Source: Astrocystis sublimbata | Taxonomy: Eukaryota; Ascomycota; Sordariomycetes; Xylariales; Xylariaceae | Reading direction: 5' to 3' | Assembly: GCA_022453515.1 (NCBI GenBank) | Contig: JAJNNY010000039.1 | Coordinates: forward strand, 286,060-350,059 | DNA: 64,000 nt | Shown: piece after piece, positions 13,203 through 63,942 of the stretch | How positions within the stretch are numbered: the stretch's first letter is position 1 | Layout: each line of letters starts with the position of its first letter | The notes under the pieces: model-generated | What the model was told of the DNA's origin: nothing | The model's database searches: none | What the model saw: the letters and a program-made list of their open reading frames with translations, nothing else | Position numbers and translations under genes: made by a program

Positions 13203-13206
<4 letters not shown>

Positions 13207-13941
13207 ATTTTGGTGAGAGTATCGGGTCCAGTGGCATTCAGCTTGTTAAAAATGCGATATTTGTATCTATCTTTGATGTGACCTAAAGGGTTGGTGGGTG
13301 ATGCTCACCTTATTAAAAACTCGCTTAGCTCCTTTCGCAGCTTTCGAATATCCTAACTCTGTTTACGCCGTATCGAGAATCCTACGCTTTATTTGACCTC
13401 ATTTCGGCTAAGAAGAGCTGAGTTTAAAGTCGCATCCGGATTGGACATGAAATTGTAGGATTGATCCCACCTGCTTATTGTTTATCTGCAGAGCTTATAT
13501 ACTACATATCAACAGACTGTAAACAGTATATTCACAATCATGCCAGAAAACATCCAACTGTAATTAACAGTCTGATAACCGCAGGTTCAGCTCTGCTTTT
13601 ACGAATATCCGAGCACCTGCATACCGCCCCCAATACCACCAGGGACATTCAGCTGTAGTATTCGAGCTTACACCGCTAGTTGATTGTCCTGTACAAGACG
13701 AGACTAGAATTCTGCGCGACAAAATGATGATTCACGAAAAGCGACTTCATTCAGTTATATCGTCAGTATAGCAGCTTATTACAAGTTGGATTTTGGAGCT
13801 ATCAAAGCTGGCGGATAGTCACATGCTCGTGAAAGTCGGAACAGCTATTCAGATAATCGCTAGACACGGAAAGACATATTCCTGTTTTTCCATTGCGTAC
13901 CTAGTAGCTAAAAAGCCGATGCATGATCTCGCTCTAGAAGC
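13207..13941. other. Intergenic region, left arm
   Basis: The region lies between the microsatellite and the 3' end of the P450 gene. It is moderately AT-rich and shows no coding signal. Two of the one-base arm differences are here (about 13475 and 13481). Confidence 0.5.
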
Positions 13942-16067
13942 TTAGGCTCTGACTCGCAACCGTAAACCATGGCTACCCCTAGCAGGGAATGGAATAATCA
14001 TATCGCGTACAACATCAATATCACGCTCGCGCACGGTATCGTATAACTCCAGAGTCGGCCCCTCTTGGCCCCGATAGACATCATATTTGCGCATAACCGT
14101 GGCAAGGATGATAAACATCTCTTGGCGGGCGAAGTTCATGCTGTGCGCTCATGTCAGTCAGTGAAAGAATCACACTCGGGTGATCGAATGAGATGACGTG
14201 GCTTGATTTCTACTGTCGAGATGTTGAGAGTTTGGGTACTCACCCAATGCAATTCCGTGTGCCTCGCGCAAAACCTATGAAACTTCTGGTTGCCATCCTC
14301 TAACCAGCGTTCTGGGCGGAACTCATACGGGTCCTCAAATACTTCTGGGTTCATATGCGCGATCTGTATCGTCATATTGGTAGGAGTACCTGCCGGGACC
14401 ACGTACTGCTTCCCGGTCGTCTTCTCTTGGTAGATGATGGGCTGATCGGGCGACACGCGGGGTAGCCGGGAGACGATGCCCGGGTGTACTCGCAAGATCT
14501 CCTGCATCATCGCATTAAAGTACGGTAGCGTTTCGATCTGGTGATATGTGGGAATGCCTCCGGCCCGCGGAATTGCTTCCGCTAGCTCATCTTTGACTCT
14601 CTTGAGGATCTTTGGGTTGGCGAGCAGTTGATAGATGGCAGCGCTAAGAGTGTATGCTGGCAGATGACAGATTGTGTTAGCTTCCCTCGACTTTTCATCT
14701 TTCTTTAGGTACCGTGTGATGCAGGTCATACCAGTTGTCCCTTGTCCTGCGAACACGACTAGCTGGGCTTCGTGAGCAAGCCGATCATTTGCTTTTTCTT
14801 CCTCGGGCAGTTTGCTGTTGAGGATACCTTCGAATATTGTACTCTTAACGCGGTCTGGGTTAGGAGAGTTCTTGATGTTCAGTACTTGTTCCATCCAAAG
14901 CTACGCGATGGAGTTAGTCGTAAGGCTCAGATCCGGCGTGATTTTGGGACTTCTCATCAACATGAATGTGACTCACCCCCTTCTTATTCCACATGTCAGA
15001 CAGCCCCGGGAGGAACGTGTGAATAGCCCAGTCAGGCGCTTTAGCAAGTATGGTTCCGACGATTGGAAAATGGCACATGGCATGGTTGAAGAGATGGAAT
15101 ACATCAGTAGCCTTCATGTAAGGGGCTGCAAAGTCCTCTTCATCCATGAAATGGAACGAGTCGCCAAACGACCATTTGGTGATGACATCGCTCGTGCAGG
15201 CTTTGATGACGTAGTGCATCGGCAGCACGGCGTTCTCGCGCCCGGCTTTATCCAATCGAATGAGTAGTTTGTCCATGTTCTCCTGCATGATGGGTTGTAG
15301 GCGGCGGATGCTGGCGCTCGAGAAGAAGACGTTGATTGTGTTGCGCCTCATGCGATGAATATCATGGTTGACTGTTGCGACGATGGAGTTTTGAGCTGAT
15401 CGCCAGGTAAGTATGATTCGAGTGCTGCATAACTACCTAGGTAATTAGGGAAAAACTGTTATGGGCCGTATGCTTACTTCCGGTCCTTCGACCAGTGGCT
15501 TCATATTTATCTGTCTTCCTGGCGGGGCCAGGAAACAAGGGGTCGATGAATTCTGGGTCGTTGAAGTGAACTTCATGGGGATTGATCCGCACGATCGGAC
15601 CTACATTAGGGTCAGGACACATCGTGAAAAACAATCAATTCGCCCTGGGCTTTTCATACCATATCTCTCATGCATCTTTGCAATTTGGCGAAAGTATTGA
15701 CCTTCGCGTAAAACATCGTAGTAGATCTCATAGAAGTATGTGAAAGCTATACTGCATTGTGAGTGGTGGTCGTTTTGGGTGGCTCTGTCTGACCTGTGTT
15801 CTTACCGGCAATCTTAGGACCTGGAATGTTGGCGAGGGATGAGAAAACCACTGTGGTCAAGCAAATCAGTTAGCATCAGTCATGGAACTTCTGGGGGCTG
15901 GGTAGAGCATAATTACAGCGATAGACTGCGAGCCCTATTAGGTACGCTACCCAAAGAATCACAGCAACATAGACTGATGTTGGGCTGAACAGTCCTACTT
16001 GTTGCCATCGATAGGTGCCACTTAGAAAAACAGCACGAGCCTGTTGTATCAGGTTGTATGAAGACAT
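13942..16067 (-). CDS. Cytochrome P450 with apparent frameshift before the heme loop (left copy)
   Basis: A membrane-anchored monooxygenase of the fungal trichodiene-oxygenase-like type. Eight exons are visible: 15917-16067, 15806-15850, 15660-15746, 15478-15600, 14977-15395, 14732-14900, 14244-14656 and 13942-14140 (about 535 codons). The start at 16067 precedes a hydrophobic anchor (VYVAVILWVAYLIGLAVY). Visible motifs are IPGPKIA, YGPIVRINPHEVH, the I-helix FAGQGTT, EILR of the K-helix and FRPERW. The heme loop GFARGTRNCIG with its cysteine is present but in another frame: near 14276 the reading frame slips after KFH, where a few residues of the usual F-x-x-F linker are missing. Both palindrome arms share this slip, so either the gene was damaged before duplication or the consensus is wrong in both. 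It is divergent from the FAD oxidase. Confidence 0.85.
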
Positions 16068-17683
16068 GATTATTGCTGTCAGTGGGGGCACAGTTTTTGG
16101 AATGTGGTTCCAGTCACTATACAACTACATATACTGGTCGTAAGATGCAATGCGTCCAAGTTATGGAAATATTCCAAGCGTCACTCATATGTATGCAGTT
16201 ATTTCCTGTGGGCTATGACGCACAACGCATACCGAGCCTATGAATAACATCGTCTACTACACAACTCGATATTACATGCATACTGAGTACACATGTGAGA
16301 GGTCTGATAAGACGTAGCCAATCGATTTCATCTTAGTTAAACCCCTGCCTGAGTCTCCTGGACCTAGGATAGATTAGAGATCTAAACTGGCAAGATGCAC
16401 AATGATTACTGTACTGGTTAGGATGGGTGTCTAACGAGATAAGCAAATGCTTCATGCGAACGGTCATTTACGTCGTGTTTCTAAAGATCGCCGTTCGATG
16501 TACAGGTAGGATTGATGGTTTAGTAACAATTATACCAAAACCACGAAGTCCATAATTAGTATGCAAGGTCAGGTCAGTTCGTGCATATCTAGTTACCTAT
16601 CAGTTTCAAGTGTAACTTTTGCTAGGATCTTCCTTGGGTATGACCAGACTCCTCTGAAAGCAGTATGAATGAGAATACACAGCTCTTACATCACTTGGTA
16701 AGCCACTTGCAATTGTTGGGAAGTTTTCTGACCCTTGCTAGCGCATGACATTGCATATGATCTTGCATGACGGGCGGGACGGGACCCGCCCCCTCCCCCC
16801 ACACGCTTACATCCTTGCTGCTACATCCATGTTGCTTACCTCGATCTAACCAATCAACACTTTGTGTAGCAGCCTAATCGGTGCACCCGCTAGTCTCTGC
16901 CGATGTGTAATAAGTGCTATACCCCAAAGAGATGCAAGCTTCCAATGGGATGACGGAAGGGATGAAGGGAGTTGCCATAGCATAGAATCCTAAAACTCTA
17001 CTCTAAAGGGGCAAGTATGAAATTACCTGGCGATGGCATGGAGGCTGGACATACTCGCCATACATATGTGTACTTAATTTATAGCAGCTAATAGACAAGA
17101 ATGTGGCACTGTTAGCCGTAGGACAACAACTATACTTACAACATAATTCGCTGTCCGCATTTCACACATGTCGGTTGGTGTGGGAGACGGACAGTCATTC
17201 TGACACTCTTGCTCGGGCCCGCCATCTGGGATATCCATAGGGCTGAAAATAGGACTCAATCGGCATGGCAATGATGACAAGGAGGGAATTACTAGGGTTT
17301 ATGGCAGCTCACCCCTAGTTCCCATATCCGGAGTGCCGGGCTTCCTCATCAATCTTCGCCTCAGCTGAACCCCGATGATTGGTGAGTTGCATTAGCTCAG
17401 TACCCAGCCATGTGGTTCGGCGAGCGCCCGACATGCTCTCAAGAGTAATTGGTTATTATTTGAGAATGTCTCATGGTTACCACCGAAGGATCAAAGGATC
17501 GAAGTAAGAATGAGGCTGCGTAAGTTATCAGAGAAGCGGCGAACTGTTGTGACATGTTATAAAAGTCTGGTCTTTTAGGACAACATTAACCATCATACAT
17601 TCCCCTCTAAGTTGCCATCTCGTCCTAGTCTGGTAGCCTTGTTATCAACGAGTCAGATTTTGAAGTAAATTGTCGTCTTGAGT
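16068..17683. promoter_or_regulatory. Divergent promoter region of P450 and FAD oxidase (left copy)
   Basis: About 1.6 kb separates two head-to-head start codons. It contains a perfect 7-base GC-rich inverted repeat at 16772-16791 followed by a C-rich run. Short frames on the minus strand around 17074-17434 have a good GTAAGT donor but no coherent protein; I do not call a gene. Confidence 0.5.
16772..16791. promoter_or_regulatory. GC-rich inverted repeat between P450 and FAD oxidase (left)
   Basis: GGGCGGG and CCCGCCC arms flank a 6-base ACGGGA centre. It is a conspicuous GC island in an AT-leaning promoter and could be a binding site for a GC-box-type factor or a hairpin. Function is not shown. 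Confidence 0.4.
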
Positions 17684-19479
17684 ATGTATGCCAAGACAAA
17701 TCTCTTGGCCGCGGCCACTTTTTCGGGGTTCGTTACCCATGTATATGCAGTACCCTTTGGGAACCACTCGAGCCCGACTTGCCGGCTCTTACCCACCGAT
17801 GCAGCATGGCCTACCGAACATGAATGGAGCGTTTTCAACCGATCTGTGGATGGCCAACTGATTGTCGGTAAACCATTGGCTGAAATGTGCCATGGCGAAT
17901 CGTTTTTGGAGAGTGTTTGCACGACAACCCGAGAATCATATAATCTGACGATGCCTTAGTGAGTCATGGTGAAGCCATCCCCCGGAATTACCTGCATCTG
18001 ATATCTGACAATCATAGCTTTGATGATCCTGTCACTGTCATGTCGCCCTTATGGCTGAACGAGAGCTGTAGTCCATATACAGCGCCCTCTGCATCATGCA
18101 CCCTTGGCAACCTCGCTTCATACGCTGTCAATGTGAGCAGTGCAAGTGATGTTCAAACAGCGGTCAAGTTCGCGAAGAAGAAGAACATTCGCGTTTCAGT
18201 CAAGAACACTGGTCATGATTATCTCGGCAGATCGACCGGCAAGGGTTCATTGGCACTGTGGACGCACAATCTCAAGGACATCTCCTTTTCAAACTATACG
18301 AGTGCCCACTATAACGGCCCAGCTGTAAAGCTCGGTGCAGGCGTACAGGCCTTCGAAGTATACGAATCTGCCTCCAGACACGGACTTCGTGTGACTGGTG
18401 GATACTGTCCCACTGTCGGACTAGCTGGAGGTTGGGTCTCAGGTGGCGGCCACGGTGCATTGGGCAGCCTTTATGGACTTGGTACGGATAACACTCTCGA
18501 GTACGAGGTAGTGACCACAGAAGGGAAGCATTTGGTCGCCAGCCCATCTGAGAATTCTGATTTATTCTGGGCGATGAATGGAGGCGGTAGTGCTTACGCT
18601 ATTGTCATTTCGCAGACTACCAGAGCGCATCCCGACGGCCCTGTAGCTGGGGTGGAGATGACTTTTACGAACACGGGCGATGACGATGCGTATTGGGCTG
18701 CTGTTGAGGCCTGGCAAAGACAGTTGCTCGTGTTTGACCAGATACCTGGTTTCAATACCTTCTGGGGGTTCTCGGACCGCTTCTTCGAACTGTACTTTTC
18801 AACATTGCCCGATGCAACGGAGGGAGCCATCGCAGATGCATTCAATCCCTTCATTGAGACATTGAAGAAGCTTGGTTTACAATACACCTACTCGACAAGT
18901 GGGATGCCGACTTATCATGAGCATTTCACGCATTACAACCCTGATCTACCGTACGGCGACTACACTACGAACAACAACATAGGAGGACGATTAATCCAGC
19001 GGAAGGCCGTGCAAGATAACCTTCCGAGTCTCATGGCCACATTTCGCAACATAACTACGAAGAACCCCACCCATCCATTTCGCGTGAATGGCATCGCGAA
19101 CAATGTCACGCATGCCCGCATCGGGAACCGCCCCGGAGACAATGTCGTGCTACCGGCATGGCGTGATTCGCTGTACTGGCTCAATATGGACGTATACTTC
19201 GACCTCGACGGCCCTATCTCCGTCGTTGAGGATCTACAGGCCGAGATGAACGTCAATCAAGACTTGCTCAAGGCCCTGACACCGGGTGGCGGAGCCTACA
19301 TCAACGAGGCGACATTCGACAACCCTGACTGGAAGAATGACTACTTTGGTGAGAACTATCCGAAACTCTTGGCTGTCAAGGAAAAATACGATCCCGCTTT
19401 CTTGCTGTATGGGTCGGCATCTGTTGGTAGTGACCGTGTGAAGCCGGACAACGAGGGACGCCTATGCAGGTCCAACTAG
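17684..19479 (+). CDS. Secreted FAD-linked oxidase, berberine-bridge-enzyme type (left copy)
   Basis: Two exons (17684-17958, 18018-19479) encode 578 aa. The start ATG at 17684 gives MYAKTNLLAAATFSGFV and a short hydrophobic stretch ending VYA, a secretion signal. The FAD_binding_4 domain is marked by NTGHDYLGRSTG (His158) and GGYCPTVGLAGGW with GGGHG (Cys222). These positions are used for bicovalent FAD attachment in the family. The C-terminal BBE segment reads NDYFGENY, KEKYDP and SASVGS. Such enzymes oxidise alcohols or form C-C and C-O bonds with oxygen and are common tailoring enzymes of fungal pathways. The many N-x-S/T sites fit extracellular or vesicular passage. A role on the PKS product is inferred from neighbourhood. 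Confidence 0.92.
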
Positions 19480-20346
19480 TTCCTTCGGTTCATTCTACTA
19501 TTCCATTCACATGGTTGTATGAAGTTTTAGACTTTTCTGATAGGCAACTGACTACTTTCTTATTCTTTTCAATAGACTAGACCATTTCTTTCAAGTTTCT
19601 TGAGCTAGATAGTAACAATGCATTGCTAGGCATGATGTCGTTTGATAGTATGTGTTATTCTTCTTGTGCCTGTAAAGATTGCAGCTATGAGCCTAAAATG
19701 TACAGCGGCATGGTTGAATCAATATCAGCAAGTTGGAATCATGTAGTCCGCATTCATCCGATTTCTCCAAACTGCCCCTACAAATTGATACACACATAGG
19801 TAAGTTGGTGGGAATTTATGGGTCGAGCTTTTTTATCTGGTACTTGCAGGTACCTAACATAACACGATATACGCTTAAAAGATTCATTGCGTTGTGTGTA
19901 TAGATCTTGTCTCGTTGCTTATGAACTTCAGTCCAAAAACAGCTCTCACGCGATAGTATAAATCAATGTCTTAGTTGCGCGCCAGCCGAAGTGGGCTATA
20001 TTAGCACTACGGACACTGGTCAACCGTACAATACCTAGTGCATGACAGGGCACCTGCAACACGAACTAGGTAGTCCTTATTCAAAAAAACTAACTGCAGG
20101 GCTCATAATTAGTTCACCCCTCCCGAACAACTAGGTACCTAGGGATGATGCAGTGAACGATCATCTCACCAGGTGCTTTTGGGTTATCAGATAAAACCAG
20201 CTTTGCTTGCATAGAATCGACGTGATAAATAAGAGGTCAAAAAATCATGGTAATTCTAGAGTAGCTAATTGCGCGGGGCTAATCCACAAAGGAGTTCTTA
20301 AACACCGGCCATGAGGCGACAGTCGCTCGTTCTGATACCTTTGCGA
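19480..20346. other. Intergenic region between convergent genes, left arm
   Basis: The 3' flanks of the FAD oxidase and the SDR meet here. CCTAGG-centred short palindromes occur near 20128-20143. No gene is seen. Confidence 0.5.
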
Positions 20347-21282
20347 TTACCACGCAACATCTTTGCCATCGTGAGTCCACATCTTGCCGCCATGAGTCTC
20401 GCGCGTAGCTGCATCCACAACCTTGACAATACCGCCGGCGCTGTCGGCGACAGGCACGGCAGCTTGCTCGAAGCCGAACGCAGCAGCGCCTCGGTTGCCC
20501 AGATCGGTCTGCGCCCAGCTAATTTGGGAAAATGGGATTAGTCTCAGGGCCGTTGCTACTTAATCGGGTTGGTGTAGTTTCACTCACCCCGGGTCGATGG
20601 GGAATGCGCAGAGCTCTGGGTGCTCGATGTGCATCGCCTTGGTATACCAGTGCGTCATAAGTTTTGTCGGCGCGTAGGCAGCGTTTTTCATCGGGATCAT
20701 TTCCCTACGCGTTATCAGTACAACATCATCGGCTTTTCGCTCCGATTGCGATTACTCACTGTGGCATGGTCAGCGGGGCTTTCCCTTTGAAAATTTTATA
20801 AAATTTATGAATTGTGGTGTTATACATACCGTGAGCCAAGCGGCACATGAACCAATAGTCACCCAAGTAGGCTTCTTGGAGCGCTGCAGCACAGGCAAGA
20901 AAGCCTGGAACAGGTGAAGGAAGCCATAGACGTTGGTTTCCAGGTGCTTCTGGATCTCCTCGGGCTTGACCTCGGCAACACTGGTCCACAGTAGGGCGAT
21001 GCCAGCGTTGGCAATGAGGATGTCTACATGGTCGATCCCCTGAGAGGCTAGCTCTTTGACGGCATTGGCGGGATCTGTGGGAGTATCGCAGTCGACCTTG
21101 ACTAGAATGTGCTTGGTGTTCTGGGCCGTGGGGTACTTTAGTAGAACCTGTGATGCGGTGTTGCTGGGATCGCGATTCGCTGAGATGACGATGTGGTTTG
21201 GCTTGGCGAGGTACTCCTTCAAGATACCTTCGCCTATACCCCGCGTGGTGCCGGTGATGAGAACAACTGTTTGGGATGCCAT
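20347..21282 (-). CDS. Short-chain dehydrogenase/reductase (left copy)
   Basis: Four exons (20826-21282, 20760-20784, 20588-20704, 20347-20518) give 256 aa, the classical SDR length. The N-terminal Rossmann motif is LITGTTRGIGEG (Gly11, Gly15, Gly17), followed by ANAGIALL, the catalytic serine in IGSCAAW and the YAPTK catalytic Tyr-Lys pair. The end IVKVVDAATRETHGGKMW resembles norsolorinic-acid-ketoreductase-like fungal SDRs. It would reduce a ketone or oxidise an alcohol with NAD(P)H in the cytosol. The start at 21282 gives MASQTVVLITG. The 25-base second exon and a 41-base first intron are unusual but are the combination that keeps the frame. Role in polyketide tailoring is inferred. Confidence 0.87.
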
Positions 21283-22080
21283 GATGAATGTATGTTGCTG
21301 TTTCTTCCGTTGTGATTCGGATAATGGTATTGGATGATGATATTCAATGATGGTTTTCAAAGGCTCTATATAAACCTCACCAGGCGAGGGAGCAAATAAA
21401 TACTAGTGTTTCTTATGGTCATGTCTCAGTGGACCAAAGCCTTTCGTGTCTCAGGGGCTTGGTAATCGTTCATCACTCAATCAATTCTTGGTAAGCGTAC
21501 TTCATGAGTTACGTGAGTTTACGTGAGTGCGTCATTCCATCAGCAGTGCCTCAGGTCCGTTGCATGCGAGAGAATAGGAACTTCGCTCTAGCTTACATCG
21601 CACATGGCGCTAAGCTCTGCTTACAGCTTACCTTGCAGCTTACTTGCATTAGCACATGGCAGCCGTGGGTCCCGTTTCCTTCCTTGCATTAGGTCCCGGT
21701 AAATAGTACAGTACATGGATACCTGCGGCTAATGCGGAATGGCGGGGAACTACCAGGTACCTAGTAAAAGTCCCTGAATGATGTTGTCACAACTCCTAAC
21801 TGTATTATGTGTAAGTACGCGATGATTGCGGCGAAGCAATGACAAATCCTGCAATTTGCTATTCGGAAAGGAGCTGCCCACTTGATGCCAGACTCGACCC
21901 AGGACATCAAGACACAATTACATTTCTTTACAAGTTGGTAGAAGGTGGGCGAGAGATCTTGATGCGCCCGCTACAGTTTACGTGAGCCAAATATTACCTA
22001 GGCACTTAGGTACTAATATTGATCAAACAGGTATGGCCATTAAAGTCTATCTATAGTTATTGTCCCAATGAGACTCTGAT
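21283..22080. promoter_or_regulatory. Upstream region of the SDR gene, left arm
   Basis: The region holds four direct GCTTAC hexamers at 21591, 21619, 21626 and 21638 and two copies of CACATGGC at 21601 and about 21653, on the side expected for the SDR promoter. CCTAGG-type palindromes occur near 22000. No gene is seen. Confidence 0.4.
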
Positions 22081-23257
22081 CTAATCAGCGAGCCCTCCGT
22101 GAAGAATTGCCTCCAGGAACTGAATCTGTGCCTGCGAAACCTTTTCCGAACCATCTCCGCTCAAGACGGTCAAATGTCCTTTGCCTTTGACAGTATACAA
22201 CTCCTTGGGCTGCTGGAACTTCTCAAAAGCTTCAATTTGCTCCTCGGGTGGCGACATGGCATCTATAGTGATTCATTAGTCTTCAAACTTCTAATTGTCC
22301 ATATTCATAGCAATCTCTTTTCGTGCGCTGCAACGGACTCTCAAAACTGAGGATCTCAACTTACCTAACTCAGGTACAATCATCATGACGGGTGTCACAT
22401 CAAGCATACAAAGCAGTGACTTCGGCTCGAACAGTGCCAACTTGTAGTACGACTGCAGAGTGATGCGATTGCGAAAGCTGGGCGCGCCCCTATCGATCAC
22501 GGCATTCATGAATTGGAACGATTCGAGGCCGCCGGGCCCTCCCGAGCCCGCCATCCCGATTGGGTTCTCGCCCCTGGCATTGAAAGGCGGCAGCGTGAAC
22601 GCTTCGTTGCCGCGAAGTTGGGATTGCCGGTCCTTGATGATTTGAACGAAGGCTTTTTCACGCTTTTCGGGCTTTACGAAGCTTAGAATAGGACAGACCA
22701 TCACTAGTGCTTTGACGCGACGATCCAGAGAAGCTGTGCAAGCACTGACCGTGGCACCAAATGACATGCCCCAAAGGGTAATTTGCGATGCATCGACACT
22801 TGGGAGAGCACTGATGTGTGTGATGATGTCTGCCAGTGATACCGACATGTGAGCTGACGTCTATGACGTTTGAATGCAAACTGCTTACCTGTGAGATCCT
22901 CAGCTTGTCGCAAGGGATCAATCTGGTTTCTTGGTGATCCGTCACTATCTCCGATGTTTCGAGGATCGTAAATGAAAGCGTTGAAACCCGATGATTGGAA
23001 TACTTCCGCAACATCTGGCAGGAGCATCTCTTTCACGCAATTGAACTACAACAGATTTAGCATGCTGCATCAGTAGTTTTGTACAACTCGAGTGGAGCAT
23101 CGGACGATTATGAGTTCTATCTCGATGTTTTAAGACTTACCCCAGGTGTCATGATGATTGCGGGTGCCGGACCAGCAACTGCATAGAAACATCCCCGAAT
23201 GGTCGTGTTGTCGATCGTCCGGCATTCTATGACTTGAAATGCGCTGATAGGAGCCAT
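22081..23257 (-). CDS. Alpha/beta hydrolase of the polyketide-transferase-like type (left copy)
   Basis: Four exons (23141-23257, 22889-23045, 22365-22829, 22081-22262) encode 306 aa. The fold is marked by IMTPG, YDPRNIGDSDG, the nucleophile elbow GMSFGA (Ser114) and GKGHLTV (His276); an acidic residue near VPELDAM completes the triad. The sequence resembles fungal hydrolases that sit beside highly reducing PKSs and release or transfer the chain, such as the fumagillin polyketide transferase group; this match is from memory of the family. It is divergent from the PKS with a shared 1.1 kb promoter. The PKS has no releasing domain, so this protein is the best candidate for offloading. Confidence 0.85.
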
Positions 23258-24397
23258 CTTAGAATATTCATGCACGTAGAATTCGACCTTTCAAAGCCAC
23301 TAAGCACAGAGAGTTGATCTATAGCAAAGAAAATCTTCTGATAATTCGGGAACTTGATATCATATGGATGGTAAAGGGCGTTCCTCGTAATATGCTCAAT
23401 TCGATTATCCTCGCACTATGACATCCGAATATCTGACGAAGAGGCACGATAAAAGATTCACGTTAAATCTAGATCAACAAATAAACTGTTGGAGGATAGG
23501 AGCTCAACTTCGATCTCATGTACGTCAGATCTTGTGCCTCCAATTAGAGGGCCTTAAAAGAAAGTTACAGAGCTACATTGCATGACTAGGTGAGGAATCG
23601 AATAAGCCTACCAATTCAATGTAGCAATGTAAGTGGGTCGGGATAAAACCCCGATAATCTTCATCTCCATATATGCAACGTAATGTGGGTTAACAACTTA
23701 TGCATGGCGAATGACCTAGAGGTATTGTAAGCTTATCCCTCATGCAACCGCAAGATTATCAGCTTCTTATCGCCATAGAAACCTCTACCCAACCTGTTCT
23801 CTGTTTTTTTACGACTTTGATCTTACTACTCTCATGTCTCATCAGCTGACGACGCATCGCCTGCGGTAGACTTCGTATGAGCCTCATGACGGGATTTCGG
23901 CCTCGGACATCAACCACCGAACAAAAAAAAGGCTTCCGTTTGCATGCATTCAGTATAATCGAAGAACATCATCGACGTATTGTCAGAGTCTGACTCTTAC
24001 TAAGGGCCAATTACACACAAGTTGTGCCAATAGCATCATCAGTGGTGGTTGGTATCAGTTGAACGCCATGCCACAGTTTGCCACTATGACGCAGCAGAGC
24101 GGACTTCGGAGGCTTCGAAAGAGTAACCGTGCATGCGATAACAGTAGAGAGTCTTGTTTGTTATGTCGCTGATCACCGATACTGCTGCCTTGTATAGGCA
24201 AACAATTGATGGCGCAGCTCGTTAGATCATATCCAACTTGCTGTGTTTTATCGCCATATATAACTGCAGCACACTTCTTAACAGCTCCACGATGCAATAG
24301 CAGGAACTCACACTCGTAACAAGCCGGCTCTTGTCAGAAAACAGGAAGACTTGACAGAATTACCATTTTCACTCTTAGATCGTTCTACTTCAAAGCT
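23258..24397. promoter_or_regulatory. Divergent promoter of hydrolase and PKS, left arm
   Basis: The 1.14 kb between two head-to-head starts should hold both promoters. No gene or clear repeat was found. Confidence 0.5.
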
Positions 24398-34341: not shown

Positions 34342-34342
34342 A

Positions 34343-42430: not shown

Positions 42431-42579
42431 CGAATCTATCCAGACAGACTCTATAGTCGCGTGCGTATACGTCCCGCGTTTTCCGTTGTTGGGTTCAACG
42501 GCCAGTAGCGCTTATGAACAGCCTGACGAGGTCTTGTTTATGCTCAGTCCCATAGCCTCCCTGCTAGCGGAGGAAGCTA

Positions 42580-42807: not shown

Positions 42808-42808
42808 T

Positions 42809-52750: not shown

Positions 52751-53890
52751 AGCTTTGAAGTAGAACGATCTAAGAGTGAAAATGGTAATTCTGTCAAGTC
52801 TTCCTGTTTTCTGACAAGAGCCGGCTTGTTACGAGTGTGAGTTCCTGCTATTGCATCGTGGAGCTGTTAAGAAGTGTGCTGCAGTTATATATGGCGATAA
52901 AACACAGCAAGTTGGATATGATCTAACGAGCTGCGCCATCAATTGTTTGCCTATACAAGGCAGCAGTATCGGTGATCAGCGACATAACAAACAAGACTCT
53001 CTACTGTTATCGCATGCACGGTTACTCTTTCGAAGCCTCCGAAGTCCGCTCTGCTGCGTCATAGTGGCAAACTGTGGCATGGCGTTCAACTGATACCAAC
53101 CACCACTGATGATGCTATTGGCACAACTTGTGTGTAATTGGCCCTTAGTAAGAGTCAGACTCTGACAATACGTCGATGATGTTCTTCGATTATACTGAAT
53201 GCATGCAAACGGAAGCCTTTTTTTTGTTCGGTGGTTGATGTCCGAGGCCGAAATCCCGTCATGAGGCTCATACGAAGTCTACCGCAGGCGATGCGTCGTC
53301 AGCTGATGAGACATGAGAGTAGTAAGATCAAAGTCGTAAAAAAACAGAGAACAGGTTGGGTAGAGGTTTCTATGGCGATAAGAAGCTGATAATCTTGCGG
53401 TTGCATGAGGGATAAGCTTACAATACCTCTAGGTCATTCGCCATGCATAAGTTGTTAACCCACATTACGTTGCATATATGGAGATGAAGATTATCGGGGT
53501 TTTATCCCGACCCACTTACATTGCTACATTGAATTGGTAGGCTTATTCGATTCCTCACCTAGTCATGCAATGTAGCTCTGTAACTTTCTTTTAAGGCCCT
53601 CTAATTGGAGGCACAAGATCTGACGTACATGAGATCGAAGTTGAGCTCCTATCCTCCAACAGTTTATTTGTTGATCTAGATTTAACGTGAATCTTTTATC
53701 GTGCCTCTTCGTCAGATATTCGGATGTCATAGTGCGAGGATAATCGAATTGAGCATATTACGAGGAACGCCCTTTACCATCCATATGATATCAAGTTCCC
53801 GAATTATCAGAAGATTTTCTTTGCTATAGATCAACTCTCTGTGCTTAGTGGCTTTGAAAGGTCGAATTCTACGTGCATGAATATTCTAAG
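52751..53890. promoter_or_regulatory. Divergent promoter of PKS and hydrolase, right arm
   Basis: Mirror of 23258-24397; no gene seen. Confidence 0.5.
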
Positions 53891-55067
53891 ATGGCTCCTA
53901 TCAGCGCATTTCAAGTCATAGAATGCCGGACGATCGACAACACGACCATTCGGGGATGTTTCTATGCAGTTGCTGGTCCGGCACCCGCAATCATCATGAC
54001 ACCTGGGGTAAGTCTTAAAACATCGAGATAGAACTCATAATCGTCCGATGCTCCACTCGAGTTGTACAAAACTACTGATGCAGCATGCTAAATCTGTTGT
54101 AGTTCAATTGCGTGAAAGAGATGCTCCTGCCAGATGTTGCGGAAGTATTCCAATCATCGGGTTTCAACGCTTTCATTTACGATCCTCGAAACATCGGAGA
54201 TAGTGACGGATCACCAAGAAACCAGATTGATCCCTTGCGACAAGCTGAGGATCTCACAGGTAAGCAGTTTGCATTCAAACGTCATAGACGTCAGCTCACA
54301 TGTCGGTATCACTGGCAGACATCATCACACACATCAGTGCTCTCCCAAGTGTCGATGCATCGCAAATTACCCTTTGGGGCATGTCATTTGGTGCCACGGT
54401 CAGTGCTTGCACAGCTTCTCTGGATCGTCGCGTCAAAGCACTAGTGATGGTCTGTCCTATTCTAAGCTTCGTAAAGCCCGAAAAGCGTGAAAAAGCCTTC
54501 GTTCAAATCATCAAGGACCGGCAATCCCAACTTCGCGGCAACGAAGCGTTCACGCTGCCGCCTTTCAATGCCAGGGGCGAGAACCCAATCGGGATGGCGG
54601 GCTCGGGAGGGCCCGGCGGCCTCGAATCGTTCCAATTCATGAATGCCGTGATCGATAGGGGCGCGCCCAGCTTTCGCAATCGCATCACTCTGCAGTCGTA
54701 CTACAAGTTGGCACTGTTCGAGCCGAAGTCACTGCTTTGTATGCTTGATGTGACACCCGTCATGATGATTGTACCTGAGTTAGGTAAGTTGAGATCCTCA
54801 GTTTTGAGAGTCCGTTGCAGCGCACGAAAAGAGATTGCTATGAATATGGACAATTAGAAGTTTGAAGACTAATGAATCACTATAGATGCCATGTCGCCAC
54901 CCGAGGAGCAAATTGAAGCTTTTGAGAAGTTCCAGCAGCCCAAGGAGTTGTATACTGTCAAAGGCAAAGGACATTTGACCGTCTTGAGCGGAGATGGTTC
55001 GGAAAAGGTTTCGCAGGCACAGATTCAGTTCCTGGAGGCAATTCTTCACGGAGGGCTCGCTGATTAG
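53891..55067 (+). CDS. Alpha/beta hydrolase of the polyketide-transferase-like type (right copy)
   Basis: Exons 53891-54007, 54103-54259, 54319-54783 and 54886-55067 give the same 306-aa protein as the left copy. The second intron (54260-54318) was chosen because the join EDLT-DIITHIS matches the usual family sequence; a nearer acceptor at 54294 would leave only a 35-base intron. Confidence 0.85.
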
Positions 55068-55865
55068 ATCAGAGTCTCATTGGGACAATAACTATAGATA
55101 GACTTTAATGGCCATACCTGTTTGATCAATATTAGTACCTAAGTGCCTAGGTAATATTTGGCTCACGTAAACTGTAGCGGGCGCATCAAGATCTCTCGCC
55201 CACCTTCTACCAACTTGTAAAGAAATGTAATTGTGTCTTGATGTCCTGGGTCGAGTCTGGCATCAAGTGGGCAGCTCCTTTCCGAATAGCAAATTGCAGG
55301 ATTTGTCATTGCTTCGCCGCAATCATCGCGTACTTACACATAATACAGTTAGGAGTTGTGACAACATCATTCAGGGACTTTTACTAGGTACCTGGTAGTT
55401 CCCCGCCATTCCGCATTAGCCGCAGGTATCCATGTACTGTACTATTTACCGGGACCTAATGCAAGGAAGGAAACGGGACCCACGGCTGCCATGTGCTAAT
55501 GCAAGTAAGCTGCAAGGTAAGCTGTAAGCAGAGCTTAGCGCCATGTGCGATGTAAGCTAGAGCGAAGTTCCTATTCTCTCGCATGCAACGGACCTGAGGC
55601 ACTGCTGATGGAATGACGCACTCACGTAAACTCACGTAACTCATGAAGTACGCTTACCAAGAATTGATTGAGTGATGAACGATTACCAAGCCCCTGAGAC
55701 ACGAAAGGCTTTGGTCCACTGAGACATGACCATAAGAAACACTAGTATTTATTTGCTCCCTCGCCTGGTGAGGTTTATATAGAGCCTTTGAAAACCATCA
55801 TTGAATATCATCATCCAATACCATTATCCGAATCACAACGGAAGAAACAGCAACATACATTCATC
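55068..55865. promoter_or_regulatory. Upstream region of SDR, right arm
   Basis: Mirror of 21283-22080 with the same GCTTAC repeats (as GTAAGC on this strand, near 55505-55557). Confidence 0.4.
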
Positions 55866-56801
55866 ATGGCATCCCAAACAGTTGTTCTCATCACCGGCAC
55901 CACGCGGGGTATAGGCGAAGGTATCTTGAAGGAGTACCTCGCCAAGCCAAACCACATCGTCATCTCAGCGAATCGCGATCCCAGCAACACCGCATCACAG
56001 GTTCTACTAAAGTACCCCACGGCCCAGAACACCAAGCACATTCTAGTCAAGGTCGACTGCGATACTCCCACAGATCCCGCCAATGCCGTCAAAGAGCTAG
56101 CCTCTCAGGGGATCGACCATGTAGACATCCTCATTGCCAACGCTGGCATCGCCCTACTGTGGACCAGTGTTGCCGAGGTCAAGCCCGAGGAGATCCAGAA
56201 GCACCTGGAAACCAACGTCTATGGCTTCCTTCACCTGTTCCAGGCTTTCTTGCCTGTGCTGCAGCGCTCCAAGAAGCCTACTTGGGTGACTATTGGTTCA
56301 TGTGCCGCTTGGCTCACGGTATGTATAACACCACAATTCATAAATTTTATAAAATTTTCAAAGGGAAAGCCCCGCTGACCATGCCACAGTGAGTAATCGC
56401 AATCGGAGCGAAAAGCCGATGATGTTGTACTGATAACGCGTAGGGAAATGATCCCGATGAAAAACGCTGCCTACGCGCCGACAAAACTTATGACGCACTG
56501 GTATACCAAGGCGATGCACATCGAGCACCCAGAGCTCTGCGCATTCCCCATCGACCCGGGGTGAGTGAAACTACACCAACCCGATTAAGTAGCAACGGCC
56601 CTGAGACTAATCCCATTTTCCCAAATTAGCTGGGCGCAGACCGATCTGGGCAACCGAGGCGCTGCTGCGTTCGGCTTCGAGCAAGCTGCCGTGCCTGTCG
56701 CCGACAGCGCCGGCGGTATTGTCAAGGTTGTGGATGCAGCTACGCGCGAGACTCATGGCGGCAAGATGTGGACTCACGATGGCAAAGATGTTGCGTGGTA
56801 A
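55866..56801 (+). CDS. Short-chain dehydrogenase/reductase (right copy)
   Basis: Exons 55866-56322, 56364-56388, 56444-56560 and 56630-56801 give the same 256-aa protein as 20347-21282. No difference from the left copy was seen. Confidence 0.87.
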
Positions 56802-57668
56802 TCGCAAAGGTATCAGAACGAGCGACTGTCGCCTCATGGCCGGTGTTTAAGAACTCCTTTGTGGATTAGCCCCGCGCAATTAGCTACTCTAGAATTACCA
56901 TGATTTTTTGACCTCTTATTTATCACGTCGATTCTATGCAAGCAAAGCTGGTTTTATCTGATAACCCAAAAGCACCTGGTGAGATGATCGTTCACTGCAT
57001 CATCCCTAGGTACCTAGTTGTTCGGGAGGGGTGAACTAATTATGAGCCCTGCAGTTAGTTTTTTTGAATAAGGACTACCTAGTTCGTGTTGCAGGTGCCC
57101 TGTCATGCACTAGGTATTGTACGGTTGACCAGTGTCCGTAGTGCTAATATAGCCCACTTCGGCTGGCGCGCAACTAAGACATTGATTTATACTATCGCGT
57201 GAGAGCTGTTTTTGGACTGAAGTTCATAAGCAACGAGACAAGATCTATACACACAACGCAATGAATCTTTTAAGCGTATATCGTGTTATGTTAGGTACCT
57301 GCAAGTACCAGATAAAAAAGCTCGACCCATAAATTCCCACCAACTTACCTATGTGTGTATCAATTTGTAGGGGCAGTTTGGAGAAATCGGATGAATGCGG
57401 ACTACATGATTCCAACTTGCTGATATTGATTCAACCATGCCGCTGTACATTTTAGGCTCATAGCTGCAATCTTTACAGGCACAAGAAGAATAACACATAC
57501 TATCAAACGACATCATGCCTAGCAATGCATTGTTACTATCTAGCTCAAGAAACTTGAAAGAAATGGTCTAGTCTATTGAAAAGAATAAGAAAGTAGTCAG
57601 TTGCCTATCAGAAAAGTCTAAAACTTCATACAACCATGTGAATGGAATAGTAGAATGAACCGAAGGAA
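56802..57668. other. Intergenic region, right arm (mirror of 19480-20346)
   Basis: 3' flanks of two convergent genes; nothing else seen. Confidence 0.5.
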
Positions 57669-59464
57669 CTAGTTGGACCTGCATAGGCGTCCCTCGTTGT
57701 CCGGCTTCACACGGTCACTACCAACAGATGCCGACCCATACAGCAAGAAAGCGGGATCGTATTTTTCCTTGACAGCCAAGAGTTTCGGATAGTTCTCACC
57801 AAAGTAGTCATTCTTCCAGTCAGGGTTGTCGAATGTCGCCTCGTTGATGTAGGCTCCGCCACCCGGTGTCAGGGCCTTGAGCAAGTCTTGATTGACGTTC
57901 ATCTCGGCCTGTAGATCCTCAACGACGGAGATAGGGCCGTCGAGGTCGAAGTATACGTCCATATTGAGCCAGTACAGCGAATCACGCCATGCCGGTAGCA
58001 CGACATTGTCTCCGGGGCGGTTCCCGATGCGGGCATGCGTGACATTGTTCGCGATGCCATTCACGCGAAATGGATGGGTGGGGTTCTTCGTAGTTATGTT
58101 GCGAAATGTGGCCATGAGACTCGGAAGGTTATCTTGCACGGCCTTCCGCTGGATTAATCGTCCTCCTATGTTGTTGTTCGTAGTGTAGTCGCCGTACGGT
58201 AGATCAGGGTTGTAATGCGTGAAATGCTCATGATAAGTCGGCATCCCACTTGTCGAGTAGGTGTATTGTAAACCAAGCTTCTTCAATGTCTCAATGAAGG
58301 GATTGAATGCATCTGCGATGGCTCCCTCCGTTGCATCGGGCAATGTTGAAAAGTACAGTTCGAAGAAGCGGTCCGAGAACCCCCAGAAGGTATTGAAACC
58401 AGGTATCTGGTCAAACACGAGCAACTGTCTTTGCCAGGCCTCAACAGCAGCCCAATACGCATCGTCATCGCCCGTGTTCGTAAAAGTCATCTCCACCCCA
58501 GCTACAGGGCCGTCGGGATGCGCTCTGGTAGTCTGCGAAATGACAATAGCGTAAGCACTACCGCCTCCATTCATCGCCCAGAATAAATCAGAATTCTCAG
58601 ATGGGCTGGCGACCAAATGCTTCCCTTCTGTGGTCACTACCTCGTACTCGAGAGTGTTATCCGTACCAAGTCCATAAAGGCTGCCCAATGCACCGTGGCC
58701 GCCACCTGAGACCCAACCTCCAGCTAGTCCGACAGTGGGACAGTATCCACCAGTCACACGAAGTCCGTGTCTGGAGGCAGATTCGTATACTTCGAAGGCC
58801 TGTACGCCTGCACCGAGCTTTACAGCTGGGCCGTTATAGTGGGCACTCGTATAGTTTGAAAAGGAGATGTCCTTGAGATTGTGCGTCCACAGTGCCAATG
58901 AACCCTTGCCGGTCGATCTGCCGAGATAATCATGACCAGTGTTCTTGACTGAAACGCGAATGTTCTTCTTCTTCGCGAACTTGACCGCTGTTTGAACATC
59001 ACTTGCACTGCTCACATTGACAGCGTATGAAGCGAGGTTGCCAAGGGTGCATGATGCAGAGGGCGCTGTATATGGACTACAGCTCTCGTTCAGCCATAAG
59101 GGCGACATGACAGTGACAGGATCATCAAAGCTATGATTGTCAGATATCAGATGCAGGTAATTCCGGGGGATGGCTTCACCATGACTCACTAAGGCATCGT
59201 CAGATTATATGATTCTCGGGTTGTCGTGCAAACACTCTCCAAAAACGATTCGCCATGGCACATTTCAGCCAATGGTTTACCGACAATCAGTTGGCCATCC
59301 ACAGATCGGTTGAAAACGCTCCATTCATGTTCGGTAGGCCATGCTGCATCGGTGGGTAAGAGCCGGCAAGTCGGGCTCGAGTGGTTCCCAAAGGGTACTG
59401 CATATACATGGGTAACGAACCCCGAAAAAGTGGCCGCGGCCAAGAGATTTGTCTTGGCATACAT
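57669..59464 (-). CDS. Secreted FAD-linked oxidase, berberine-bridge-enzyme type (right copy)
   Basis: Exons 59190-59464 and 57669-59130 encode the same 578-aa secreted flavoprotein as 17684-19479, including the two flavin-attachment residues. No difference from the left copy was seen. Confidence 0.92.
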
Positions 59465-61080
59465 ACTCAAGACGACAATTTACTTCAAAATCTGACTCGT
59501 TGATAACAAGGCTACCAGACTAGGACGAGATGGCAACTTAGAGGGGAATGTATGATGGTTAATGTTGTCCTAAAAGACCAGACTTTTATAACATGTCACA
59601 ACAGTTCGCCGCTTCTCTGATAACTTACGCAGCCTCATTCTTACTTCGATCCTTTGATCCTTCGGTGGTAACCATGAGACATTCTCAAATAATAACCAAT
59701 TACTCTTGAGAGCATGTCGGGCGCTCGCCGAACCACATGGCTGGGTACTGAGCTAATGCAACTCACCAATCATCGGGGTTCAGCTGAGGCGAAGATTGAT
59801 GAGGAAGCCCGGCACTCCGGATATGGGAACTAGGGGTGAGCTGCCATAAACCCTAGTAATTCCCTCCTTGTCATCATTGCCATGCCGATTGAGTCCTATT
59901 TTCAGCCCTATGGATATCCCAGATGGCGGGCCCGAGCAAGAGTGTCAGAATGACTGTCCGTCTCCCACACCAACCGACATGTGTGAAATGCGGACAGCGA
60001 ATTATGTTGTAAGTATAGTTGTTGTCCTACGGCTAACAGTGCCACATTCTTGTCTATTAGCTGCTATAAATTAAGTACACATATGTATGGCGAGTATGTC
60101 CAGCCTCCATGCCATCGCCAGGTAATTTCATACTTGCCCCTTTAGAGTAGAGTTTTAGGATTCTATGCTATGGCAACTCCCTTCATCCCTTCCGTCATCC
60201 CATTGGAAGCTTGCATCTCTTTGGGGTATAGCACTTATTACACATCGGCAGAGACTAGCGGGTGCACCGATTAGGCTGCTACACAAAGTGTTGATTGGTT
60301 AGATCGAGGTAAGCAACATGGATGTAGCAGCAAGGATGTAAGCGTGTGGGGGGAGGGGGCGGGTCCCGTCCCGCCCGTCATGCAAGATCATATGCAATGT
60401 CATGCGCTAGCAAGGGTCAGAAAACTTCCCAACAATTGCAAGTGGCTTACCAAGTGATGTAAGAGCTGTGTATTCTCATTCATACTGCTTTCAGAGGAGT
60501 CTGGTCATACCCAAGGAAGATCCTAGCAAAAGTTACACTTGAAACTGATAGGTAACTAGATATGCACGAACTGACCTGACCTTGCATACTAATTATGGAC
60601 TTCGTGGTTTTGGTATAATTGTTACTAAACCATCAATCCTACCTGTACATCGAACGGCGATCTTTAGAAACACGACGTAAATGACCGTTCGCATGAAGCA
60701 TTTGCTTATCTCGTTAGACACCCATCCTAACCAGTACAGTAATCATTGTGCATCTTGCCAGTTTAGATCTCTAATCTATCCTAGGTCCAGGAGACTCAGG
60801 CAGGGGTTTAACTAAGATGAAATCGATTGGCTACGTCTTATCAGACCTCTCACATGTGTACTCAGTATGCATGTAATATCGAGTTGTGTAGTAGACGATG
60901 TTATTCATAGGCTCGGTATGCGTTGTGCGTCATAGCCCACAGGAAATAACTGCATACATATGAGTGACGCTTGGAATATTTCCATAACTTGGACGCATTG
61001 CATCTTACGACCAGTATATGTAGTTGTATAGTGACTGGAACCACATTCCAAAAACTGTGCCCCCACTGACAGCAATAATC
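59465..61080. promoter_or_regulatory. Divergent promoter of FAD oxidase and P450, right arm
   Basis: Mirror of 16068-17683; the GC-rich inverted repeat lies at 60357-60376. A 39-codon ATG frame at 59714 on the + strand ends in TAG before any usable splice site and is not called. Confidence 0.5.
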
Positions 61081-63206
61081 ATGTCTTCATACAACCTGAT
61101 ACAACAGGCTCGTGCTGTTTTTCTAAGTGGCACCTATCGATGGCAACAAGTAGGACTGTTCAGCCCAACATCAGTCTATGTTGCTGTGATTCTTTGGGTA
61201 GCGTACCTAATAGGGCTCGCAGTCTATCGCTGTAATTATGCTCTACCCAGCCCCCAGAAGTTCCATGACTGATGCTAACTGATTTGCTTGACCACAGTGG
61301 TTTTCTCATCCCTCGCCAACATTCCAGGTCCTAAGATTGCCGGTAAGAACACAGGTCAGACAGAGCCACCCAAAACGACCACCACTCACAATGCAGTATA
61401 GCTTTCACATACTTCTATGAGATCTACTACGATGTTTTACGCGAAGGTCAATACTTTCGCCAAATTGCAAAGATGCATGAGAGATATGGTATGAAAAGCC
61501 CAGGGCGAATTGATTGTTTTTCACGATGTGTCCTGACCCTAATGTAGGTCCGATCGTGCGGATCAATCCCCATGAAGTTCACTTCAACGACCCAGAATTC
61601 ATCGACCCCTTGTTTCCTGGCCCCGCCAGGAAGACAGATAAATATGAAGCCACTGGTCGAAGGACCGGAAGTAAGCATACGGCCCATAACAGTTTTTCCC
61701 TAATTACCTAGGTAGTTATGCAGCACTCGAATCATACTTACCTGGCGATCAGCTCAAAACTCCATCGTCGCAACAGTCAACCATGATATTCATCGCATGA
61801 GGCGCAACACAATCAACGTCTTCTTCTCGAGCGCCAGCATCCGCCGCCTACAACCCATCATGCAGGAGAACATGGACAAACTACTCATTCGATTGGATAA
61901 AGCCGGGCGCGAGAACGCCGTGCTGCCGATGCACTACGTCATCAAAGCCTGCACGAGCGATGTCATCACCAAATGGTCGTTTGGCGACTCGTTCCATTTC
62001 ATGGATGAAGAGGACTTTGCAGCCCCTTACATGAAGGCTACTGATGTATTCCATCTCTTCAACCATGCCATGTGCCATTTTCCAATCGTCGGAACCATAC
62101 TTGCTAAAGCGCCTGACTGGGCTATTCACACGTTCCTCCCGGGGCTGTCTGACATGTGGAATAAGAAGGGGGTGAGTCACATTCATGTTGATGAGAAGTC
62201 CCAAAATCACGCCGGATCTGAGCCTTACGACTAACTCCATCGCGTAGCTTTGGATGGAACAAGTACTGAACATCAAGAACTCTCCTAACCCAGACCGCGT
62301 TAAGAGTACAATATTCGAAGGTATCCTCAACAGCAAACTGCCCGAGGAAGAAAAAGCAAATGATCGGCTTGCTCACGAAGCCCAGCTAGTCGTGTTCGCA
62401 GGACAAGGGACAACTGGTATGACCTGCATCACACGGTACCTAAAGAAAGATGAAAAGTCGAGGGAAGCTAACACAATCTGTCATCTGCCAGCATACACTC
62501 TTAGCGCTGCCATCTATCAACTGCTCGCCAACCCAAAGATCCTCAAGAGAGTCAAAGATGAGCTAGCGGAAGCAATTCCGCGGGCCGGAGGCATTCCCAC
62601 ATATCACCAGATCGAAACGCTACCGTACTTTAATGCGATGATGCAGGAGATCTTGCGAGTACACCCGGGCATCGTCTCCCGGCTACCCCGCGTGTCGCCC
62701 GATCAGCCCATCATCTACCAAGAGAAGACGACCGGGAAGCAGTACGTGGTCCCGGCAGGTACTCCTACCAATATGACGATACAGATCGCGCATATGAACC
62801 CAGAAGTATTTGAGGACCCGTATGAGTTCCGCCCAGAACGCTGGTTAGAGGATGGCAACCAGAAGTTTCATAGGTTTTGCGCGAGGCACACGGAATTGCA
62901 TTGGGTGAGTACCCAAACTCTCAACATCTCGACAGTAGAAATCAAGCCACGTCATCTCATTCGATCACCCGAGTGTGATTCTTTCACTGACTGACATGAG
63001 CGCACAGCATGAACTTCGCCCGCCAAGAGATGTTTATCATCCTTGCCACGGTTATGCGCAAATATGATGTCTATCGGGGCCAAGAGGGGCCGACTCTGGA
63101 GTTATACGATACCGTGCGCGAGCGTGATATTGATGTTGTACGCGATATGATTATTCCATTCCCTGCTAGGGGTAGCCATGGTTTACGGTTGCGAGTCAGA
63201 GCCTAA
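61081..63206 (+). CDS. Cytochrome P450 with apparent frameshift before the heme loop (right copy)
   Basis: Exons 61081-61231, 61298-61342, 61402-61488, 61548-61670, 61753-62171, 62248-62416, 62492-62904 and 63008-63206 mirror the left copy. The frame slip is at about 62871-62872: KFH is followed, one base out of phase, by GFARGTRNCIG and the last exon MNFARQEMF. The 75-base intron at 62417-62491 is a multiple of three and free of stops, so it can be misread as coding within the I-helix. Confidence 0.85.
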
Positions 63207-63939
63207 GCTTCTAGAGCGAGATCATGCATCGGCTTTTTAGCTACTAGGTACGCAATGGAAAAACAGGAATATGTCTTTCCGTGTCTAGCGATTATCTGAA
63301 TAGCTGTTCCGACTTTCACGAGCATGTGACTATCCGCCAGCTTTGATAGCTCCAAAATCCAACTTGTAATAAGCTGCTATACTGACGATATAACTGAATG
63401 AAGTCGCTTTTCGTGAATCATCATTTTGTCGCGCAGAATTCTAGTCTCGTCTTGTACAGGACAATCAACTAGCGGTGTAAGCTCGAATACTACAGCTGAA
63501 TGTCCCTGGTGGTATTGGGGGCGGTATGCAGGTGCTCGGATATTCGTAAAAGCAGAGCTGAACCTGCGGTTATCAGACTGTTAATTACAGTTGGATGTTT
63601 TCTGGCATGATTGTGAATATACTGTTTACAGTCTGTTGATATGTAGTATATAAGCTCTGCAGATAACAATAGCAGGTGGGATCAATCCTACAATTTCATG
63701 TCCAATCCGGATGCGACTTTAAACTCAGCTCTTCTTAGCCGAAATGAGGTCAAATAAAGCGTAGGATTCTCGATACGGCGTAAACAGAGTTAGGATATTC
63801 GAAAGCTGCGAAAGGAGCTAAGCGAGTTTTTAATAAGGTGAGCATCACCCACCAACCCTTTAGGTCACATCAAAGATAGATACAAATATCGCATTTTTAA
63901 CAAGCTGAATGCCACTGGACCCGATACTCTCACCAAAAT

Positions 63940-63941
<2 letters not shown>
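63207..63941. other. Intergenic region, right arm (mirror of 13207-13941)
   Basis: No gene seen. Near 63674-63684 it lacks two bases present in the left arm. Confidence 0.5.

Positions 63942-63942
<1 letters not shown>

What the first reader, a model, noticed from the sequence alone, without database searches (positions are those of the whole stretch)
13203..63942. Giant palindrome: a whole polyketide cluster duplicated as a 2 x 25 kb mirror image
All six cluster genes, their promoters and flanking relics occur twice in opposite orientation around 38,576. Natural palindromes of this size are rare in fungi because they are unstable. If real, the strain has two copies of a biosynthetic pathway in a hairpin-capable structure (breakage-fusion, fold-back repair or an isochromosome-like end). 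If not real, it is a fold-back read or assembly artefact that would mislead cluster counts.
Basis: seen in the sequence. Interest (0 to 1): 0.92.

Follow-up and report, generated by a model that had tools for sequence, protein, structure and literature searches.

The report
Fold-back assembly artefact at contig end
The giant mirror image around a fungal polyketide gene cluster is really in the sequence record, but it looks like a fold-back error made while the DNA was copied, sequenced or assembled, so the cluster most likely exists once, not twice.

Summary
The palindrome is in the record: bases 13,144-64,000 mirror themselves about ~38,575; from 13,200 to 38,299 the arms show 25,092 matches, 0 substitutions, 10 indel columns. 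It is very probably not a chromosome structure. The right arm ends at the last base of its contig, so there is no right flank. A second contig, C31, holds the same arms folded ~290 bp earlier. Ten other loci in this assembly show mirrored copies, seven checked on DNA, three only by gene positions. For two of them, contigs C163 and C113 carry the arm once and read straight past the fold into unmirrored sequence. At all four folds that could be compared with an unfolded copy or paralogue, including this one, the junction sits on a short hairpin. This is the mark of snap-back copying, a known source of chimeric long reads. The arms carry one reducing polyketide synthase cluster; the organism is probably Astrocystis sublimbata, Xylariaceae. 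Fold-backs formed in living nuclei are not excluded: no reads could be examined.

The parts
13144..38568 (+). Left arm, joined on its left to 299 kb of unmirrored C123 sequence; taken as the true single copy
   Evidence: outer part found only on C123, once per arm
38563..38587 (.). Fold junction: 6-bp stem (38,563-38,568 with 38,582-38,587) around a 13-nt loop (38,569-38,581), inside an AT-rich repeat; four aligned paralogues run past it without folding
38582..64000 (-). Right arm, mirror copy of the left arm that stops at the contig end; taken as a false extension
38066..39086 (.). AT-rich repeat (and its mirror) with many 70-91% paralogues, most of them near contig ends
14154..14900 (-). Cytochrome P450 piece (mirrored in the right arm)
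   Evidence: PF00067
17944..19479 (+). Berberine-bridge-type FAD oxidase (mirrored); best relative 96% identical, named Astrocystis sublimbata
   Evidence: PF01565, PF08031
20770..21402 (-). Short-chain dehydrogenase piece (mirrored)
   Evidence: PF00106
22291..22860 (-). Possible alpha/beta hydrolase piece (mirrored)
   Evidence: PF00561 at 22.9 bits, under its cut-off of 25.8
24750..30326 (+). Pieces of a highly reducing polyketide synthase in three open frames searched apart (mirrored)
   Evidence: PF00109, PF02801, PF00698, PF21089, PF14765, PF23114
35223..36473 (+). Ankyrin-repeat protein, perhaps the cluster regulator (mirrored)
   Evidence: PF12796 and others; regulator role inferred

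Best explanation
The palindrome is a false contig extension. A DNA strand in the AT-rich repeat near 38,575 snapped back on a short natural hairpin (6-bp stem, 13-nt loop) and was copied back along itself. The genome most likely holds one copy of the cluster, and the chromosome goes on past ~38,568 into sequence this contig lacks. Shown: the four arm copies are one sequence, the arm end is the contig end, the same arms fold at two points, folds occur at about eleven loci, unfolded counterparts exist at two other loci, and hairpins lie at the four junctions that could be compared. Inferred: that the copying happened in vitro (amplification, end repair or sequencing) rather than in cells, and that chimeric molecules rather than the overlapper alone made the join.
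For: No right flank: contig end = arm end. Same arms in C31 with another axis. Four-way comparison: 38 of 39 differing columns away from C31's junction are private to one copy. Near-perfect palindromes also in C172, C132, C130, C9 and C101, ending at the contig end in C172 and C132, 4 bp short in C130, at base 1 of C101, and followed to within 38 bp of the end in C9. Mirror pairs in surveys not chosen by the repeat: C141, C126, C170, C42, C114, C121. C163 and C113 carry the sequence next to the C121 and C141 axes once and continue 148 kb and 1.3 Mb past it, unmirrored. Hairpins at 3 of 3 junctions with an unfolded copy and at C123's by comparison with 4 paralogues.
Against: No reads were examined, so depth and axis-crossing molecules are unknown. 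No unfolded copy of the C123 locus itself was found (each scored 40 of 81 candidates). In the four-way comparison the C123 right arm has fewer private differences (1) than the left (6), which does not look like a single raw read. Two contigs folding within 290 bp at one locus needs a recurrent cause; the hairpin-rich repeat may supply it, but in nanopore HG002 gDNA recurrent fold-back sites were few (PMC12870357). In C132 the arms differ by 153 RIP-like transitions in one inner block, which copying of one molecule cannot give.
Confidence: 0.82

Rival explanations
1. Assembler-only error: no chimeric molecule exists; the assembler overlapped ordinary reads with their own reverse complements through natural imperfect inverted repeats in the AT-rich sequence.
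For: Natural imperfect inverted repeats exist: at the C163 axis the self-complement score is 128 against a maximum of 42 in 60 shuffles, and the C123 left half scores 116 against 56; 86% in C156 and 88.5% in C35.
Against: The unfolded C113 axis scores no higher than shuffles (52 against 58). The C31, C141 and C123 junctions rest on stems of only 5-7 bp, too short for a read overlap, and the loop lengths (15 for 14, 7 for 7) fit hairpin priming.
Confidence: 0.08
2. Real fold-back in some nuclei: a chromosome broke in the AT-rich repeat, the end snapped back on a hairpin and was copied in the cell, giving palindromic or hairpin-capped ends alongside normal chromosomes in the culture.
For: The junction anatomy is what in vivo hairpin-primed copying would also leave. 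The same locus folds twice in independent contigs. C132 has arms that differ by RIP-like changes, so at least one mirrored pair is not one molecule copied once.
Against: Arms of about 4-26 kb that stop at contig ends look like fragment or read lengths; an in vivo copy would be expected to run on towards a chromosome end (inference). Unfolded forms exist for two loci. No contig shows new sequence beyond a mirrored arm, except that C101 runs 2.5 kb on from one side.
Confidence: 0.06
3. A stable palindromic chromosome end or isochromosome-like duplication in this strain, so that the polyketide cluster is truly present twice.
For: The arms are intact, equally well polished and nearly identical over 25 kb.
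Against: No telomere or unmirrored sequence follows the right arm; C31 shows a different fold of the same arms; zero substitutions in 25 kb would need a very recent origin; about ten other loci do the same.
Confidence: 0.03

Closest known systems
Fold-back artefacts in long reads (Heinz, Meyerson and Li 2026, PMC12870357; abstract, Results and Discussion read)
   Same: Second half of the molecule is the reverse complement of the first; little or no sequence between the halves; sites can recur
   Different: Described in reads, not in contigs; seen mainly in nanopore data and almost absent from their three PacBio sets; here the fold survived into polished contigs and sits on a short hairpin
Palindromes from whole-genome amplification in PacBio reads (Warris et al. 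2018, PMC6218980; abstract and Background read)
   Same: A polymerase copies back along its own product and makes long artificial palindromes that harm assembly
   Different: Whether this DNA was amplified is unknown
In vivo inverted duplications by template switching or fold-back, such as ODIRA (PMC10766183; search listing and start of abstract only)
   Same: Inverted copies joined near short inverted repeats (recalled)
   Different: Those are structures in cells with sequence on both sides; here no right flank exists and unfolded contigs exist at two other loci

Membership tests
Fold-back sequencing or assembly artefact | Arms are the same sequence apart from consensus noise | tested here: met
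   0 substitutions, 10 indel columns in 25.1 kb; 38 of 39 columns private to one of four copies
Fold-back sequencing or assembly artefact | Mirrored arm ends with the contig, no unmirrored flank beyond | tested here: met
   C123; also C172, C132, C130 within 4 bp
Fold-back sequencing or assembly artefact | An unfolded version of the same locus exists | tested here: inconclusive
   Found for C121 (C163) and C141 (C113); for C123 only unfolded paralogues
Fold-back sequencing or assembly artefact | Axis-crossing reads are few and symmetric; depth is single copy | not testable with these tools
   No reads held
Whole-genome-amplification palindrome | DNA was amplified before sequencing | not testable with these tools
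   No paper on this genome found
Natural chromosomal palindrome | Unmirrored sequence or a telomere beyond both arms | tested here: not met
   Right arm stops at the contig end
Natural chromosomal palindrome | One constant axis | tested here: not met
   C123 folds at ~38,575, C31 at ~38,282
Terminal fold at a telomere (telomere fusion) | Telomere repeats at the axis | tested here: not met
   The C123 axis is AT-rich without TTAGGG arrays (sequence printed)

The most novel reading that the evidence does not exclude
The fungus really makes hairpin-primed fold-back palindromes at AT-rich repeats in a share of its nuclei, so that gene clusters next to them, polyketide clusters among them, are doubled for a time, as a breakage and fold-back cycle would do. 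The RIP-like divergence between the arms of C132 would then be the trace of a real, inherited example.
Probability: 0.06. Interest if true: 0.75.

Novelty: not a real feature. Interest (0 to 1): 0.15.

Why it matters
Thirteen contigs of this assembly, about eleven loci, show mirrored copies (nine contigs checked on DNA, four by gene positions only), and C31 consists of arm sequence alone, so gene and cluster counts are inflated: one PKS is listed four times. The signature (arm end at contig end, hairpin at the axis, two different folds of one locus, an unfolded counterpart elsewhere) can be screened for in other long-read fungal genomes. It also points to ends that may be joined better: C121 with C163, and C141 with C113.

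Tried and rejected
Telomere-fold reading. A 60-base TTAGGG query found nothing, but that search skips simple repeats. The pattern search (list cut; 114 forward and 42 reverse matches in all) and fetched ends show telomere arrays ending C15, C143 and C156. None lies at the C123 axis. C132's fold lies beyond short TTAGGG runs.

Adapter remnants. A script looked for 12-base pieces of recalled SMRTbell and nanopore adapters in the window and the loci held by then: none in the window, one in C145 (L022:6,449), a contig stretch without a palindrome. Consensus polishing could have removed such traces, so this says little.

Unfolded continuation of C123. Searches gave, apart from C123 and C31, paralogues only (best 99% hits all C31; the rest 91% or less). 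Each scored 40 of 81 candidates, so a miss is not proof.

Hairpin-prone axis family. In a self-complement test with 60 shuffles each, 4 of 8 AT-rich stretches beat all shuffles (C129, C163 axis, C123 left half, C145 by one point) and 4 did not (C35, C28, C70, C113 axis); 0 of 2 gene stretches did. The long inverted repeat is thus not a feature of every copy.

C132 mosaic. I asked whether one arm's diverged block comes from a third genomic copy; neither version has one in the assembly. Unexplained.

Sequencing platform. Paper searches for this genome found none; a search on missed adapters returned 0 papers; a search on large fungal palindromes listed 10 papers, none close by title.

Mended on checking: ten, not nine, other loci; C42 is no longer called a contig of little but palindrome, since only one mirrored gene pair was seen there; odds of the assembler-only rival lowered from 0.12 to 0.08 because the C113 axis has no significant self-complement score.
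Full report
OBSERVATION. The window matches its own reverse complement from 13,144 to 63,999 over 50,890 columns at 99.83%. Between 13,200 and 38,299 there are 25,092 matches, 0 substitutions and 10 indel columns; the other differences crowd into the AT-rich centre and the outermost ~20 bp.

WHERE IT LIES. The window is bases 286,060-350,059 of contig C123, which is 350,059 long, in a 42.6-Mb assembly of 189 contigs. The right arm therefore stops with the contig and has no right flank or telomere. A query over the arm's outer end matches C123 only, once per arm. The FAD oxidase at 17,944-19,479 is 96% identical to Astrocystis sublimbata protein F4808DRAFT_472104, listed on a contig of 350,059 bases. 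The species belongs to the Xylariaceae. The cluster is an ordinary reducing PKS cluster.

A SECOND, DIFFERENT FOLD. Contig C31 (35,909 bp) is made of the same arms: window 22,841-38,296 forward, then back to 17,795. Its axis lies at window ~38,282, about 290 bp before C123's. Over the 15.45 kb common to the four arm copies, 44 columns differ. Five lie at C31's junction. Of the other 39, 38 are private to one copy (C31 right 20, C31 left 11, C123 left 6, C123 right 1), and one is a two-against-two split in a long C run. Two are substitutions, the rest one-base indels, mostly in short homopolymers. There is no shared variant that would mark a second genomic copy. The C123 right arm is the least noisy of the four, which counts against a single raw read as its source.

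MANY SUCH FOLDS. I compared 32 fetched stretches with themselves, many of them chosen because they match the axis repeat or hold TTAGGG, so this sample is biased, and some overlap each other. Near-perfect palindromes showed in C172, C132, C130, C9, C101 and C31; imperfect ones (86% and 88.5%) in C156 and C35. The outer end mirrors to the last base of the contig in C172 and C132 and to 4 bp before it in C130; C101's begins at base 1 of its contig, which runs 2.5 kb on at the other side; C9's was followed to within 38 bp of the end, where the compared stretch stopped. Two surveys not chosen by the repeat list places only, and their counts are lower bounds. For ketoacyl synthase (144 matches) mirror pairs lie on C31, C123, C141, C126, C170 and C42, the last two with similar rather than equal scores. 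For protein kinase (139 matches) they lie on C114 and C121. C141 and C121 were then confirmed on DNA next to the axis. That makes 13 contigs and about 11 loci: nine contigs checked on DNA, four (C126, C170, C42, C114) by gene positions only.

UNFOLDED COUNTERPARTS. The 270 bases next to C121's axis occur once on C163 (147,949-148,218) and twice, mirrored, on C121, all at 100%. C163 is 162,537 long and runs 148 kb past the axis. The 299 bases beyond the axis hold no N and are not the mirror: the local alignment score is 60, against 540 for a perfect mirror. It does exceed the maximum of 36 in 50 shuffles, which shows an old imperfect hairpin element there. By coordinates C163 ends where C121's right arm ends, 14,589 against 14,590 bases from the axis. 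Likewise the sequence next to C141's axis lies once on C113 at 99%, with 1.3 Mb past it and no mirror beyond (score 35, shuffle maximum 39). At these two loci the fold is at most one of two structures.

MECHANISM. Where an unfolded copy can be set beside a fold, the junction lies on a short inverted repeat already present there. C31 against C123's left arm: 7-bp stem, 14-nt loop, 15 nt seen in the fold. C141 against C113: 5-bp stem, 7-nt loop, 7 nt seen, though with other letters. C121 against C163: a 20-nt perfect palindrome. For C123 itself I used four paralogues that had been fetched (C35, C28, C129, C70). They follow the right arm, read inwards, through the loop and the far side of the stem (CTAA in 4 of 4), and then diverge without folding. 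The stem is 38,563-38,568 with 38,582-38,587, the loop 38,569-38,581. Stems of 7 bp with loops of 3-30 nt are dense in the AT-rich stretch (0.044 per base) and rare in three stretches of the arm (0, 0 and 0.004), so a short hairpin near any point of the AT-rich stretch is not surprising by itself; the fit of loop length and position is the stronger part. This is what hairpin-primed copy-back would leave. Stems this short could not make a false read overlap, so physical chimeric molecules are likelier than a purely computational join. Arm lengths of about 4-26 kb look like fragment or read lengths.

THE AXIS REPEAT. From, after merging neighbours, I count 38 loci of the axis repeat (40 of 81 candidates were scored). 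Of the 36 whose contig length I learnt, 24 lie within 3.2 kb of a contig end, 5 are fold axes and 7 are internal. Contigs tend to stop in this AT-rich family, and that is where rare chimeric reads can take over the extension (inference).

LITERATURE. Fold-back reads made up about 0.55-0.6% of nanopore gDNA reads, typically fewer than half had more than 11 bases between the halves, and many sites recurred, though few did in the newest gDNA sets; three PacBio sets showed almost none (PMC12870357, Results and Discussion read). Whole-genome amplification yields palindromic fragments that make assembly of long reads highly problematic (PMC6218980, abstract and Background read). No paper on this genome was found, so platform and amplification are unknown.

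WHAT DOES NOT FIT. In C132 the two arms differ in one inner block (positions 2,472-4,092 of L030) by 153 transitions. Of these, 69 are CpA changes, against 169 CpA among 871 C-sites in the block, which resembles RIP. The parts on both sides are nearly identical, and neither version has a third copy in the assembly. Copying one molecule back cannot give this. It may reflect two chromosome ends or two strains merged in one contig, or a real inverted duplication. No unfolded form of the C123 locus was found, and no reads were available.

VERDICT. The palindrome is in the record and, most likely, not in the chromosome. One polyketide cluster is present, and the contig is probably wrong from about 38,569 to its end.

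Noticed in passing
L030 (C132:272,751-282,750), positions ~2,470-4,090 against the mirror: The two arms of C132's palindrome differ in this block by 153 transitions, enriched at CpA as RIP would leave, with nearly identical sequence on both sides and no third copy in the assembly. Unexplained.
   Followed up: partly
C163:~147,700-148,200 (L076 with the axis-adjacent sequence of L074): A natural imperfect inverted repeat with TTAGTCACTAA-like motifs, perhaps a fold-back MITE, lies at the C121 fold axis (self-complement score 128, shuffle maximum 42).
   Followed up: partly
C170 (~101,199-116,324) and C42 (~78-14,804): By ketoacyl-synthase positions these look like a second pair of contigs that share one mirrored locus, as C123 and C31 do.
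   Followed up: no
C13:12,061-12,759 and C88:9,550-10,248: A protein kinase with the same score near the starts of two contigs, perhaps redundant contig ends.
   Followed up: no
L035 (C156:178,001-178,539): A ~335-bp AT-rich imperfect palindrome (86%) directly next to a TTAGGG telomere.
   Followed up: no
L033 (C15 end) and L030 (C132): A ~490-bp spaced pair of short TTAGGG runs precedes the telomere of C15 and recurs inside C132, like a subtelomeric unit.
   Followed up: no
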